From Trichothermofontia sichuanensis B231 (GTDB taxonomy: Bacteria; Cyanobacteriota; Cyanobacteriia; B231): a stretch of DNA of 64,000 nucleotides. Below are positions 6,859 to 11,430 of this stretch, piece after piece. Under the pieces are notes generated by a model that was given only the letters and a program-made list of their open reading frames with translations, was not told the origin of the DNA and did not search any database. The position numbers were made by a program, and so were the translations under genes. Location of the stretch: positions 498,501-562,500 of the forward strand of contig NZ_CP110848.1 in the NCBI RefSeq assembly GCF_026240635.1, given 5' to 3'. Numbering within the stretch: the first letter of the stretch is position 1; each line of letters starts with the position of its first letter.

Positions 6859-7581
6859 TTAGCGATCGCGAATCTGACCGTTGGCCATGACGGTATGGCT
6901 AAATCGGGCCGCCCGAAAATTGGCAAATGGGTGGCGGGCTTCCCTAAGCACCGTTCCCTGTAAATTTGCCCCCCCCAAGTTTGTCCAGATTAACCAAGCT
7001 TGGCTCAAATTGGCATTGGTTAAATCGGCCCCCTGTAGGTCTGTGAGCAAGAGATTCGCTCTGCTGAGATTAGCTTGCTTTAAATCTGCGCCCCGTAGGT
7101 GGGCAAAGCGCAGATCAGCCGCATAAAGATTGGCCGATCGCAGATCGAGGCCATCCAGATTAGCCCCCATCAACTTGGCTCGACTCAGGTTAGCCCCCTG
7201 AAGACTGAGATGATGCAGATCATGCCCCTGCCAGACCGTGAATATCATCTGTACTGCCCACCCCACGATCGCGAGGGGAACAACCAGTGCCACCATCATC
7301 AGCCCCAACAGTAGACACTGGTTGATCAGAAACAATAGGGTAACGGCCTTAGGTGCGATCGTTGATCCTAGGCTCCATAACACGAACACAATCACCACAC
7401 TCAAAATCCCCACCTGTGTGAGTCGATTTAAGTAAACGATTAAGGAGCGTAAGCCAGATATAAGACCTACCGGTAAACTCGGTCCCCGCAAGTCAGGGAT
7501 GAGGGTTGGGTGCTGCGATCGCCATTGGTTCCAATGGGGGACACCTTGCCGCAACTGCGCTACGTGTTCTGGGTTGGCCAT
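6859..7581 (-). CDS. Membrane-anchored pentapeptide-repeat protein
   Basis: 240 residues. The N-terminus (MANPEHVAQLRQGVPHWNQW) matches a motif found at the start of many cyanobacterial pentapeptide proteins and of the one at 20955. Two hydrophobic segments follow (about residues 60-77 and 84-112), probably transmembrane. From about residue 125 to 215 come repeats of the A(D/N)Lxx type, predicted to form a right-handed quadrilateral beta helix. No enzymatic residues are seen and the role is unknown; a scaffold or binding function at the membrane is a guess. The start ATG is well placed, and no longer frame exists. Confidence 0.8.
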   Translation of the reverse strand: MANPEHVAQLRQGVPHWNQWRSQHPTLIPDLRGPSLPVGLISGLRSLIVYLNRLTQVGILSVVIVFVLWSLGSTIAPKAVTLLFLINQCLLLGLMMVALVVPLAIVGWAVQMIFTVWQGHDLHHLSLQGANLSRAKLMGANLDGLDLRSANLYAADLRFAHLRGADLKQANLSRANLLLTDLQGADLTNANLSQAWLIWTNLGGANLQGTVLREARHPFANFRAARFSHTVMANGQIRDR

Positions 7582-7626: not shown

Positions 7627-9120
7627 TTAGGAAAATTGCGTGCGGAGTTTGACAATAAAAGTTGTCCCTACATCCACCGTACTGGCAAAAAAAATTTCTC
7701 CTTGCTGGAGGTTGACACAACGCAGCACGATTGCTAGCCCCAAACCATAACCCGGGATAGACTCAATATTGCTACCTCGGTAGAAGGATTCAAATATCCT
7801 GGCCTGATCAGCGACGGGAATCCCTCGACCGTAGTCTTCAATCCGAAAGGTTATCATTTGGTTTTTCAAGTCAGCTATGATCTCAAACTGGACAGTCTGA
7901 TCAGAATTTGAATATTTAAGTGCATTCGATAATAAACTATACAAAGTATGATGTAGCAAACGTTCATCGAGATTAACAGTTGTTATACTAGGATCGAAAT
8001 TAAATTGAATTCGTTCCACAGCACGCTCATCCTCTTCTAGGAGAGATTGGAGTAACTCCTCACAGAAATGGCGCAAATCCAGAGGAGCCGGTGCCACAAC
8101 CTGAGTAACCTGTTCGGTTTGGGCGAGCAGTGTGATAGTTTCTAGAACCTGATTCATCTGCTCAACAGCAGCTTCAATCTGAGCAAGTTGTTCTTCATGC
8201 TGAGCTTCTGACCAACGTGAACCATAAAGTTGTAAGAGGCCGGTAGAAGATAGGATTGTATTTAATGGTGTCCGGAATTGGCGAGTTAGTAGATCCGTAA
8301 AGCGATCGTGGAGTTGTTTTAATTCCAGTTCTTTGGCTAGGGATGGTGCTAAGTTAACATGGGCATGGCGTTGACTTAAATCCCAAAATACAATAACGGC
8401 GCCATTGGGTTGCCCCTGACTGGTTAGTGGGCTAACACTATCTCCGATCGCGATCTGATTACCATGACGGGTTACCAAGCTGGCAAATGCCTGAAGGTAG
8501 ACGACCTGTCGCTCACGAATGGCTTGGAGAACCGGGCTAGCAATCGGTTCTTGGGTACGCTGATCCACCAAATTAAGAATATCAGTAATTGACTGACCGA
8601 TGGCTTCCTGGCAAGACCATCCTGTCAGCTCTTCAGCAGCGGGGTTTATAAAGGTAACTTGCCCTTGTTGATCAGTGGCAATCACCCCATCACTCATACA
8701 GCTAAATAAAACATCGAGTGGATCAGGGATGCACACTTCCAGCGTATGATAGTGCTGTGCTAAACCAATTTCCAAGGCAACCTTTAAGTTAAGTTCATTG
8801 ATCGGCTTAACTAAGTAACCAACTGGTTGAGTTTGCTTAGCACGCTCTAAAGTTTGATCATCTGCATAGGCAGTAAGATAAATAATAGGAATTCTCAACT
8901 GATTGTGAATCTGACAAGCTGCATCAATGCCATCAATTTCTGAATCTGAACGTAGCACAATGTCCATTAAAACAATATCAGGACGGGTTTCGGCTGCCTT
9001 TTCGATCGCTTCTCGTCCTGTTGAGAAAATGCCAACTACCTGATGACCTAACTGTCCTAACATCACTGCAATTGTCTGCGCAACAATCACCTCATCTTCA
9101 ACAATCATAACTTTAAACAT
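7627..9120 (-). CDS. Hybrid sensor: receiver-PAS-histidine kinase lacking the phospho-acceptor His
   Basis: 497 residues. The receiver domain (1-125) has the acidic pair, Asp53 in LMDIVL and the Lys of VKPI, so it can probably be phosphorylated. A PAS domain follows (about 130-245; VIATDQQGQVTFINPAAEEL), then a dimerisation helix and an HATPase domain (about 375-495) with intact N box (LLSNALKYS) and G boxes (DYGRGIP, GYGLGLA). The H box reads LLTRQFRTPLN, where the family has S-H-E-[LF]-R-T-P-L: the phospho-acceptor His is Arg280. Autophosphorylation at the usual site is therefore not expected. It lies downstream of a second hybrid kinase on the same strand, with a repeat between them, and could share a pathway with it. 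Confidence 0.88.
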   Translation of the reverse strand: MFKVMIVEDEVIVAQTIAVMLGQLGHQVVGIFSTGREAIEKAAETRPDIVLMDIVLRSDSEIDGIDAACQIHNQLRIPIIYLTAYADDQTLERAKQTQPVGYLVKPINELNLKVALEIGLAQHYHTLEVCIPDPLDVLFSCMSDGVIATDQQGQVTFINPAAEELTGWSCQEAIGQSITDILNLVDQRTQEPIASPVLQAIRERQVVYLQAFASLVTRHGNQIAIGDSVSPLTSQGQPNGAVIVFWDLSQRHAHVNLAPSLAKELELKQLHDRFTDLLTRQFRTPLNTILSSTGLLQLYGSRWSEAQHEEQLAQIEAAVEQMNQVLETITLLAQTEQVTQVVAPAPLDLRHFCEELLQSLLEEDERAVERIQFNFDPSITTVNLDERLLHHTLYSLLSNALKYSNSDQTVQFEIIADLKNQMITFRIEDYGRGIPVADQARIFESFYRGSNIESIPGYGLGLAIVLRCVNLQQGEIFFASTVDVGTTFIVKLRTQFS

Positions 9121-9202
9121 TGAGGGAGGCTCCGAGTAGATTTGATCTTTGAGCTTATTATTTTTCTAGAGCTTCAATTGTTATGATATACACGGGCTAG
9201 CT

Positions 9203-9338
9203 TCGTCTTCTCCCAAAAAAGGCGAAAGGGAGCCAGATTGGCCAATCCCTCTCCCGCTCTGGGAGAGGGATTTAGGGTGAGGGCGGCACCCAGTCTACCC
9301 AGGTAAAACCGTACTTTATGATTGAGGTAAGGCTGTAA
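9203..9338 (-). repeat. Dispersed repeat family B, copy 1 (one end)
   Basis: On the minus strand it starts TACAGCCTTACCTCAATCAT, continues AAAGTACGG, and then a C/G-rich hairpin (CCCTCTCCC/GGGAGAGGG) and GGCTCCCTTTCGCC. It matches copy 2 (11253) and the left half of copy 3 (57487). It sits between the two sensor-kinase genes; copies 1 and 2 flank the second kinase gene in opposite orientation. Confidence 0.8.
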
Positions 9339-9353
9339 AACATCCCATCTTGT

Positions 9354-11207
9354 CTAACTGGAATGGATAGGGAGCAGATAATCATTAACACTGTGTGTGC
9401 CTCCGTTGGCAAACCGAATTTCAAAGGCAGTGCCTGGTTCTGATAATTGTTTGATTGTCCCTCGCAGTTGGGCAGTCACCAATTGATGTACTAGCGGTAA
9501 TCCGAGCGAATGACAGGTGTTCAGATTAAAGTCATCAGGTAAGCCAATCCCTGTATCCCAAATCTTAAGGACTATGATTTGGGTCGATTCCCGATAGATG
9601 TGGATCCCGATCGTTCCAGTTTGCTGATCAGGGAAGGCATATTTAAGTGAATTAGATAGTAATTCGTTAATAATCAAGCCACAGTAAATAGCAAGGTTAG
9701 GATTTAGCTCAATTGAGTCAATTTTTAGCAGTAAATTTATTCTATCTTGGCTAGCACATAAGGAACTATATAGATGTCTAGCTAGAGTTTGGATATAACG
9801 TCCAAGATCAATACGTGATAGATTCTGCGATCGACATAACTGATCATGAATATGAGCCATACTTTCAATGCGATCGCGACTAGCCTTAAGAATACTGGTA
9901 ATTTCTGGATTGTTGAGATGATAACTTTGTAAATAGAGTAAACCAGAAATAATTTGAAGATTATTCTTGACGCGATGATGAAGTTCGCGTAGAAGAACCT
10001 CTTTTTCAGCAAGGGCTGCTTTGATTTGTTGGCTGGCCTGTTTTTGTTCTGTCCAATCCTCAATTAAACCAACAATGCGATAGGGTTGTCCTAGGGCATT
10101 CTGAATCGGAAAACGGCGATCGCGAATCCAGCGTACTGACCCATCAGCACGAATAATTCGATACTCCAAACAAGCATTATAATTTGATTCAGTCCAGGAT
10201 TTGTCTAAAAATAATGGTTGATTGAGAAGATGACGATCGTCGGGATGAACTAATCGAGTCCAATCCCAGGCATGACGATATAGCGATCGTCGGGATAGTT
10301 GAAAAATCTGTTCATAGGCAGGGCTGACATAAACAAACTTCTGGCGGACAAAATCCATAATCCAAAAAGCTTCCCGGATGTTTTCGGCAATATGACTTAG
10401 ATGTAGTTCACTTTCTTTGAGAGCTAATTCTAAACATTTCAACTGAGTAATATCTCGCAAAACAAATACTAACCCAATCGGCTCTTGTTTTTGATTGCGT
10501 AAAACCCTGACCGAGGTAAAAATGCTTAGTACTTGTCCATCATGGCAAACATGTTTATTCTCGCCATACCATTCGCCAATTGTAGCCAGTGATTTAACAG
10601 CGATCGCTTCATCTTCGGGCTGGAGCCAATGAGATTGATAAAGCGTTTTCAAAGGTTGACCAATAACCTTATCGATAGGCATACCATAGAGATTTTCTGC
10701 TTTTTTATTTAGATAGATAATATGATAATCCAGATCAGTCGCAACCACAGCTTCAGGTAGTTTCTTGAGAAGCATTGTTAAAAATTGACATGAATTTGCT
10801 TCACTAGTGATATTTTTTCGTTGTTCTTCTAAATCGAAAGCACCCTTAATCCGTACTAAGCACTCAGCCTTAGAAACAGGTTCAATCATATAGTCGGTTG
10901 CACCTGCCGATAATCCTTTGAGACAGATATCGGCTGCTGCTTCAGTAGCTAGTAATAGCAGAGGTAGCTTTGCCGTCGTTGACGTTTGTCTTATATTTTT
11001 AACCCATTCAAATTGATTAACTTCAGCCAAGGATAATTCAATGATGATCAGATCCGGCTGACAACGGTCAATGATGTCAAGAGCCCGTGGCCGCTTGCTA
11101 ACCACTGTTAAGTGATAGGGAGGGCTAAGCATCTGCCGTAGTTGTGCTTGCACCTCAACACGAGACTCAATCAGTAGGATGTGGTATCGGGGAGCATTCA
11201 ACGGCAT
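9354..11207 (-). CDS. Hybrid sensor kinase with pseudo-receiver, two PAS domains and HisKA_2 kinase
   Basis: 617 residues. The N-terminal receiver-like domain (8-125) has Glu57 where the phosphorylated Asp belongs (PDLIIIELSL) and Glu109 where the conserved Lys belongs (DYMIEPV), so it is a pseudo-receiver. Two PAS domains follow (about 140-260 and 270-395; PAC motifs VFVLRDIT and VGLIEDWTEQK). The kinase is of the HisKA_2 group with ELHHRVKNNLQ (His411 the likely acceptor) and an HATPase domain with NELLSNSLKYAF and DTGIGLP. It is probably soluble, having no membrane segments. It lies upstream of the other hybrid sensor on the same strand. The signal sensed is unknown. Confidence 0.88.
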   Translation of the reverse strand: MPLNAPRYHILLIESRVEVQAQLRQMLSPPYHLTVVSKRPRALDIIDRCQPDLIIIELSLAEVNQFEWVKNIRQTSTTAKLPLLLLATEAAADICLKGLSAGATDYMIEPVSKAECLVRIKGAFDLEEQRKNITSEANSCQFLTMLLKKLPEAVVATDLDYHIIYLNKKAENLYGMPIDKVIGQPLKTLYQSHWLQPEDEAIAVKSLATIGEWYGENKHVCHDGQVLSIFTSVRVLRNQKQEPIGLVFVLRDITQLKCLELALKESELHLSHIAENIREAFWIMDFVRQKFVYVSPAYEQIFQLSRRSLYRHAWDWTRLVHPDDRHLLNQPLFLDKSWTESNYNACLEYRIIRADGSVRWIRDRRFPIQNALGQPYRIVGLIEDWTEQKQASQQIKAALAEKEVLLRELHHRVKNNLQIISGLLYLQSYHLNNPEITSILKASRDRIESMAHIHDQLCRSQNLSRIDLGRYIQTLARHLYSSLCASQDRINLLLKIDSIELNPNLAIYCGLIINELLSNSLKYAFPDQQTGTIGIHIYRESTQIIVLKIWDTGIGLPDDFNLNTCHSLGLPLVHQLVTAQLRGTIKQLSEPGTAFEIRFANGGTHSVNDYLLPIHSS

Positions 11208-11252: not shown

Positions 11253-11430
11253 CCTACAGCCTTTACCTCAATCATAAAGTACAGCGTGTCTGAGTAGGCT
11301 GGGTGCCGCCCCCGGGTGTGGCCCTCACCCTAAATCCCTCTCCCAGAGCGGGAGCGGGACTGGCCAATCCGGCTCCCCTTCTCCCAAAAAGGGAGAAGGG
11401 GGTGGGGGATGAGGGCTGCCGGTCGGTGGG
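11253..11430 (+). repeat. Dispersed repeat family B, copy 2 (one end)
   Basis: Starts CTACAGCCTTTACCTCAATC and continues ATAAAGTACAG. It contains two successive hairpin-prone stretches: CCCTCTCCC/GGGAGCGGG and CCCCTTCTCCC/GGGAGAAGGGG. It ends near GCTGCCGGTCGGTGGGAGC. The second closely matches the interior of copy 3. Confidence 0.8.

What the first reader, a model, noticed from the sequence alone, without database searches (positions are those of the whole stretch)
9354..11207. Partner kinase with a pseudo-receiver (Asp to Glu, Lys to Glu)
Its receiver-like domain has Glu57 at the phosphorylation site and Glu109 at the Lys site, while its HisKA_2 kinase core is normal. Together with the neighbour (normal receiver, dead H box) the two proteins have one working kinase and one working receiver between them, which fits a split phosphorelay.
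Basis: inference. Interest (0 to 1): 0.55.

Follow-up and report, generated by a model that had tools for sequence, protein, structure and literature searches.

The report
Sensor pair with two disabled domains
Two neighbouring genes of a photosynthetic bacterium form a signalling pair of a kind found across many relatives, but here each protein has lost one of its signal-passing sites, so only one working sender (in the kinase) and one working receiver (in its partner) remain.

Summary
Gene A (9354-11207, minus) is pseudo-receiver-PAS-PAS-HisKA_2-HATPase. Its receiver-like domain has lost four of five catalytic residues (Ser15, Glu57, Ala87, Glu109; Glu14 kept); its kinase core is intact. Neighbour B (7627-9120, minus) is receiver-PAS-HisKA-HATPase with an intact receiver and a dead H box (His280Arg, Glu281Gln).

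In cyanobacteria 28 of 29 kinase loci found with A alone have a B-like gene next, and 25 of 29 loci found with B alone have a HisKA_2 kinase upstream. The misses are contig ends. In the widest set, 70 of 73 kinases have the neighbour.

The 'one working kinase, one working receiver' reading is only partly right. In relatives the kinase usually has no receiver and B keeps both its receiver and its His (49 of 49 full-length). The two losses are later, local changes, not complementary halves of one relay. B's loss is confined to the DHp domain (1 of 7 conserved positions kept; 16 of 16 kept in the ATP-binding domain). That suggests a pseudo-histidine kinase kept in use.

Most likely: A phosphorylates B at Asp53, and B signals without phosphotransfer.

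The parts
9354..11207 (-). Gene A, 617 aa: pseudo-receiver, PAS, PAS, HisKA_2, HATPase_c
   Evidence: ORF; Pfam
10851..11183 (-). A pseudo-receiver domain (residues 9-119)
   Evidence: sites E14 S15 E57 A87 E109
11037..11039 (-). A Glu57 codon (GAA on the coding strand) at the phospho-Asp position
10881..10883 (-). A Glu109 codon (GAA on the coding strand) at the conserved Lys position
10443..10775 (-). A first PAS domain (about residues 145-255)
10068..10337 (-). A second PAS domain (residues 291-380)
9765..9989 (-). A HisKA_2 domain (residues 407-481)
   Evidence: HRVKNN motif in all 66 aligned kinases
9975..9977 (-). A His411 codon, predicted phosphorylated His
   Evidence: sequence; that this His of the HR.KN motif is the acceptor is recalled, not tested
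9414..9680 (-). A HATPase_c domain (residues 510-598)
7627..9120 (-). Gene B, 497 aa: receiver, PAS, degenerate HisKA, HATPase_c
8773..9111 (-). B intact receiver (residues 4-116)
   Evidence: sites EDDTK
8962..8964 (-). B Asp53 codon, predicted phospho-acceptor
8362..8697 (-). B PAS domain (residues 142-253)
8113..8328 (-). B DHp region (residues 265-336), below the Pfam HisKA cut-off (25.4 vs 26.9 bits)
8278..8283 (-). B Arg280-Gln281 codons where 49 of 49 full-length relatives have His first
7642..7968 (-). B HATPase_c domain (residues 385-493), 16 of 16 conserved positions kept
9121..9353 (.). 233-bp A-B spacer holding a copy of a dispersed repeat

Best explanation
A and B are one signalling unit. 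A is a soluble HisKA_2 sensor kinase (two PAS domains, no membrane segment seen) that autophosphorylates on His411 and passes the phosphoryl group to Asp53 in B's receiver. A's own receiver-like domain cannot be phosphorylated and serves as a fixed or ligand/partner-responsive input module on the kinase, as pseudo-receivers of ShkA and CikA do. In relatives B's phosphorylation would switch B's own HisKA kinase. Here B has lost that phosphorylatable His but kept its ATP-binding domain, so B most likely acts as a phosphorylation-switched pseudo-histidine kinase that signals by binding (DivL-like logic) and not by phosphotransfer. Shown: domain content, residue changes, conservation of the gene pair, and where conservation is lost. 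Inferred: the phosphotransfer, the role of the pseudo-receiver and B's output.
For: Pair conservation: 28 of 29 A-found loci and 25 of 29 B-found loci carry the partner next door; the five misses are contig ends; 70 of 73 kinases in the widest set. The genome's second HisKA_2 kinase also has a receiver-kinase gene after it. A core keeps 36 of 38 conserved positions; B keeps 27 of 30 in the receiver, 9 of 10 in PAS, 16 of 16 in HATPase but 1 of 7 in DHp (6 of 7 against 4 of 56 changed, Fisher p about 2e-5). DHp identity to its group is 30% against a median of 67% among members; the other domains are 49-57% against 61-71%. Precedents: ShkA and CikA pseudo-receivers inhibit their own kinase (PMC12632262, passages); DivL is a His-less kinase core that reads a phosphorylated receiver (PMC4211667, section 15).
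Against: No biochemistry. Only one genome of this order is held, so the two losses cannot be shown to be conserved over time; they could be recent. A and B are no longer tightly abutted (233-bp spacer with a repeat hairpin), which could weaken co-expression. The tree does not place A's core firmly with the partner cores of B's closest relatives, although it does not reject that (AU p 0.43).
Confidence: 0.55

Rival explanations
1. True split phosphorelay: A phosphorylates B Asp53, and the phosphoryl group moves on to a His elsewhere (an HPt or another HisKA protein) and then to a further receiver.
For: One live His and one live Asp remain between the two proteins. A relay from a kinase through a stand-alone receiver to a His phosphotransferase is known in Sphingomonas (Pak-SdrG-PhyT-PhyR; PMC5898713, abstract).
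Against: B is not a stand-alone receiver; it carries PAS and a kept ATP-binding domain, which a mere shuttle would not need. No HPt gene was identified by eye in the ORF list of the window (no HPt profile was run). Relatives show the cassette works with B's own kinase present, so no onward His is implied by ancestry.
Confidence: 0.15
2. B's disabled kinase core is now only a phosphatase: with His gone but Thr284 kept, and ATP/ADP binding kept, B removes phosphoryl groups from another regulator under control of its own receiver.
For: The conserved His is not essential for HisKA phosphatase activity (PMC12632262, section 6). Thr284 is kept in RQFRTPL and the HATPase domain is intact.
Against: The neighbouring Glu is also changed (Glu281Gln) and most DHp positions are altered, which argues against a conserved catalytic surface. 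The same review finds His loss more frequent in HisKA than HisKA_3, against phosphatase being the general role of such proteins.
Confidence: 0.12
3. Decay: the receiver domain of A and the DHp of B are relics drifting after loss of need.
For: Both proteins have long tree branches (A 1.0 against a median of 0.13, B 1.37 against 0.18) and the pair is split by a repeat.
Against: Both frames are open and full length. Loss in B is confined to DHp while receiver, PAS and HATPase keep 52 of 56 conserved positions, and A's core keeps 36 of 38. Long branches also fit an organism without close relatives in the set.
Confidence: 0.13
4. Constitutive-on module: Glu57 mimics phospho-Asp, so A's receiver is locked in an active form that keeps the kinase on.
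For: Glu is the commonest replacement at this site (26% of Asp-less receivers) and Asp-to-Glu can activate some receivers, often only with further changes (PMC4395418, passages).
Against: The conserved Lys, Thr/Ser and second acidic residue, which hold the active pocket together, are also gone, so a faithful mimic is unlikely.
Confidence: 0.05

Closest known systems
Bacterial pseudo-receivers inside kinases: ShkA (Caulobacter) and CikA (Synechococcus elongatus)
   Same: A receiver-like domain lacking the phospho-Asp is carried by a histidine kinase and controls it (PMC12632262, passages)
   Different: A has it at the N-terminus of a HisKA_2 kinase with PAS domains; no bound ligand is known. 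That CikA carries the domain at its other end is recalled
DivL, pseudo-histidine kinase of Caulobacter
   Same: Kinase fold without the phosphorylatable His, PAS domain(s), retained structure (PMC4211667, outline and section 15)
   Different: B carries its own intact receiver and Arg, not Tyr, at the His site; DivL reads a separate receiver protein
HstK-type Ser/Thr plus His kinases of cyanobacteria (Alr2258 of Anabaena)
   Same: Several partners of B's closest relatives have Ser/Thr kinase, AAA, GAF and HisKA_2 domains, a layout like the Ser/Thr-plus-His kinases of that paper (PMC2176072, passages); the match to HstK itself was not tested
   Different: A has a pseudo-receiver and two PAS domains instead
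Pak-SdrG-PhyT-PhyR relay of Sphingomonas
   Same: A kinase, a receiver and a His protein working in steps (PMC5898713, abstract); that Paks are HisKA_2/HWE kinases is recalled
   Different: There the relay passes through a His that is present; in B the His is lost

Membership tests
Pseudo-receiver (Asp-less receiver, PF00072) | Recognised as a receiver by profile | tested here: met
   36.0 bits against cut-off 30.2, profile 1-110 of 111
Pseudo-receiver (Asp-less receiver, PF00072) | Lacks catalytic residues including the phospho-Asp | tested here: met
   S15, E57, A87, E109; four of five changed
Pseudo-receiver (Asp-less receiver, PF00072) | Five-fold beta-alpha fold kept | tested here: inconclusive
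   AlphaFold2 with two sequences, mean pLDDT 60.2, first four strand-helix units seen, last one poor
HisKA_2 histidine kinase (A) | HisKA_2 and HATPase_c domains with HR..NN motif | tested here: met
HisKA_2 histidine kinase (A) | Autophosphorylation | not testable with these tools
   no assay
Pseudo-histidine kinase (B) | Kinase core recognisable but phospho-His absent | tested here: met
   H280R; HATPase_c 80.7 bits, HisKA 25.4 bits, just under its cut-off of 26.9
Pseudo-histidine kinase (B) | Still integrated in a signalling pathway | tested here: inconclusive
   kept next to a HisKA_2 kinase and conserved in three of four domains; no function shown
Cyanobacterial HisKA_2 kinase / receiver-kinase gene pair | Receiver-kinase gene directly after the kinase on the same strand | tested here: met
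   B follows A on the minus strand with a 233-bp gap; most relatives abut or overlap
Cyanobacterial HisKA_2 kinase / receiver-kinase gene pair | Second protein keeps its phospho-His | tested here: not met
   49 of 49 full-length others have His, B has Arg
Multi-step phosphorelay | His-Asp-His-Asp chain | tested here: not met
   within the pair only one live His and one live Asp; an onward His elsewhere in the genome was not searched for
DivL-like pseudokinase | Binds a phosphorylated receiver through the kinase core | not testable with these tools
   no binding data

The most novel reading that the evidence does not exclude
The pair has been rewired into a phosphorylation-switched, ATP-binding pseudo-histidine kinase: A-His to B-Asp is the only phosphotransfer left. 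A's pseudo-receiver pairs with B's receiver (a dummy and a live receiver forming a heterodimer that sets transfer or dephosphorylation), and B's kinase core has become a binding module. That would be a two-gene system in which a pseudo-receiver and a pseudo-kinase, in different partners, evolved in the same lineage. The same N-terminal position has at least one other Asp-less receiver in the set (L232, Asp to Gly).
Probability: 0.2. Interest if true: 0.62.

Novelty: new variant of a known kind. Interest (0 to 1): 0.42.

Why it matters
How bacterial pseudo-receivers are switched is described as a mystery in a 2025 review (PMC12632262, abstract). Missing Asp occurs in 2.0% of receivers and missing His in 0.9% of HisKA domains (same review, section 6); here both sit in a single conserved pair, with intact counterparts in many relatives and an intact second cassette in the same genome as natural controls. 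That gives a clean test of what a pseudo-receiver and a pseudo-kinase do to a two-component pair. The wider cassette (a HisKA_2 kinase with interchangeable sensors followed by a receiver-kinase) may deserve a description of its own; my ten answered paper searches listed none that I recognised, from titles and starts of abstracts.

Tried and rejected
Considered a chance receiver match: rejected (full-length profile match). Considered that Glu57/Glu109 are usual for this receiver type: rejected; the 29 nearest receivers from other genomes all read D-D-D-S/T-K. Considered that the dead H box is a family trait: rejected. Considered a single sequencing error in the H box: unlikely, since two adjacent codons and most other conserved DHp positions differ. 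Considered that A was recruited from an unrelated kinase: not shown; the tree leaves A's core unresolved outside the 17-row partner clade, but an AU test does not reject it there (p 0.43). Structure prediction of the pseudo-receiver with two window sequences gave pLDDT 60.2; not used further and no fold search was made. The search for related loci in genome contigs gave only three distant kinase-core matches. The PDB sequence search with the pseudo-receiver listed the best 60 of 120 matches, receiver proteins by their names, PleD best; I did not check which of them lack the Asp. Search in NCBIfam gave no model over its cut-off among the 25 of 100 (A) and 25 of 162 (B) matches shown, apart from the generic PAS-box domain model TIGR00229 for A.

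Rows dropped before counts: 71 B-like hits were cut to 49 distinct ones that span from before residue 25 to after residue 380, so shorter PAS-less B-like proteins are not in the H-box count. Two read by eye keep His. The kinase counts use one row per distinct core sequence, with 7 of 73 possibly cut at the N-terminus. Loci came from the best 30 matches per search, out of 54 and 55 genomes with a match among 388. The receiver HMM used included A's own receiver, so A's score in it is circular; the Pfam score is not.

Full report
What was checked. The ORF at 9354-11207 (minus strand, 617 aa, 'A') exists and contains Response_reg, two PAS, HisKA_2 and HATPase_c. Glu57 and Glu109 stand at the phospho-Asp and conserved Lys positions. 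The alignment adds two more losses, Ser15 for the second acidic residue and Ala87 for Thr/Ser, so only Glu14 of the five active-site residues is kept. The downstream neighbour 'B' (7627-9120, minus, 497 aa) is receiver-PAS-HisKA-HATPase_c, with a complete receiver site and TRQFRTPL in place of SHEFRNPL, that is His280Arg and Glu281Gln.

How unusual it is inside the genome. The genome (4.44 Mb, one contig) has 87 Response_reg places; A scores 40.1 bits and ranks 78th. After alignment of 91 stretches, 80 have Asp at the site, 8 another residue (L164 and L223 may be the same place) and 3 a gap; A alone has Glu at both the Asp and the Lys site. The closest receivers listed from 388 genomes of the class are 23-33% identical and the 29 examined all have canonical residues. 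Published rates are 2.0% of receivers without Asp and 0.9% of HisKA domains without His (PMC12632262, section 6).

Do the two genes belong together? Searching the class with A alone gave 54 of 388 genomes with a match at 1e-60; of the 29 non-self loci handed out, 28 have a B-like receiver-kinase gene next to the kinase, and the other (L016) lies at a contig edge. Searching with B alone gave 55 of 388 genomes; of 29 non-self loci, 25 have a HisKA_2 kinase directly upstream, and the other four (L050, L057, L061, L062) end within 200 bases of B. In a larger set of 73 distinct kinases, 70 have the B-like gene next on the same strand, mostly abutting or overlapping. The three others are L247 (contig edge), L249 and L250, the last two real exceptions. 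Among 40 B-centred stretches, 38 had the kinase; L096 and L102 did not. The genome itself has a second such unit, with its receiver-kinase 939 bases after the kinase and its His in place (L176).

What the relatives look like. The sensor part of the kinase is interchangeable: PAS and GAF domains, Ser/Thr kinase plus AAA plus GAF, or an ethylene-receptor-like N-terminus, and CBS domains in the genome's second unit. The Ser/Thr-plus-His layout resembles HstK (Alr2258), named in PMC2176072 (passages); I did not test the match. Receivers in the kinase are rare: 5 of 73, of which L247, L255, L237 and L248 look canonical and L232 has Asp changed to Gly and an Asn in the acidic pair. So a degenerate receiver at the N-terminus of this kinase type occurs at least twice in the set, but A's changes are its own. 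B-like proteins are uniform: 49 of 49 full-length ones keep the receiver Asp and Lys and the His of the H box.

Where conservation is lost. Against positions at least 95% identical in the 49 others, B keeps 27 of 30 in the receiver, 9 of 10 in PAS, 16 of 16 in the ATP-binding domain, but 1 of 7 in the DHp region that carries the His. Six of 7 changed in DHp against 4 of 56 elsewhere gives Fisher p of about 2e-5; this treats positions as independent. Mean identity of B to the 17 closest relatives is 30% in DHp, where members share a median of 67%, and 49-57% elsewhere, where members share 61-71%. One other protein, L110, also departs at 7 of 9 DHp positions but keeps a His. A's kinase core keeps 36 of 38 conserved positions. 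This pattern is what a pseudo-histidine kinase kept in use would show, and not general decay.

Trees. B falls in a fully supported group of 23 rows that holds the 17 relatives above (100/100); its exact place inside is weak (86/48). A's core falls outside the 17-row clade of those relatives' partner kinases but in an unresolved set, and holding it with that clade is not rejected (AU p 0.43). Both A and B have long branches. Shared descent of the pair is therefore compatible, not proven.

How it most likely works. A, apparently cytosolic, senses through PAS domains and its pseudo-receiver, autophosphorylates on His411 and phosphorylates B Asp53. B then changes conformation and, lacking the His, signals through binding by its PAS and ATP-binding core. 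The kinase-to-receiver step follows from gene pairing and intact residues; the rest is inference with precedents: ShkA and CikA pseudo-receivers inhibit their own kinase (PMC12632262, passages), and DivL reads a phosphorylated receiver with a His-less core (PMC4211667, section 15).

Relation to known kinds. A meets the definition of a pseudo-receiver by sequence; fold was not confirmed (AlphaFold2 mean pLDDT 60.2). B meets the definition of a pseudo-histidine kinase by sequence. The pair meets the neighbour criterion of the cyanobacterial cassette but fails the criterion that the second protein keeps its His. I call it a new variant of a known kind.

Limits. Only one genome of the order is held, so the persistence of the changes cannot be tested. 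No assay, expression or phenotype exists here. Genomes other than the window's are unnamed; 'cyanobacterial' rests on recall: the GCGATCGC motif (62 copies in the window) and cyanobacterial family names among weak matches.

Noticed in passing
9221-9337 and 11255-11384: Gene A is bracketed by inverted copies (79% over about 130 bp) of a dispersed repeat with 42 listed places (one part) and 40 listed places (another part) in the genome; one copy sits between A and B and can form a strong G+C-rich hairpin. Recombination between them could invert A relative to B.
   Followed up: partly
6859-7581 (minus): A pentapeptide-repeat-like protein gene with hydrophobic N-terminal stretches starts 45 bp after B on the same strand and may share its transcript; its only match among the fetched relatives is a repeat protein in L248, upstream of the kinase there and not after B.
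   Followed up: partly
L232:2370-5306 (minus): A related HisKA_2 kinase with an N-terminal receiver that is also degenerate (Asp to Gly, Asn in the acidic pair, Lys kept), followed by a receiver-kinase gene with His in place.
   Followed up: partly
L090, L092, L094: Some kinases of this cassette carry an ethylene-receptor-like N-terminal domain (ETR1_N, E about 1e-43), so the receiver-kinase may be the response partner of bacterial ethylene-receptor homologues.
   Followed up: no
G000 places L218, L219, L220, L223, L228, L230: Other Asp-less receivers of the same genome (Ala, Glu, Ala, Gly, Ala, Pro at the site); L230 (Pro and Glu) lies in a 649-aa frame and was not identified.
   Followed up: no
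L110:4947-6515: A B-like protein whose H box reads SHILPPPV, with most DHp consensus positions changed but His kept.
   Followed up: no
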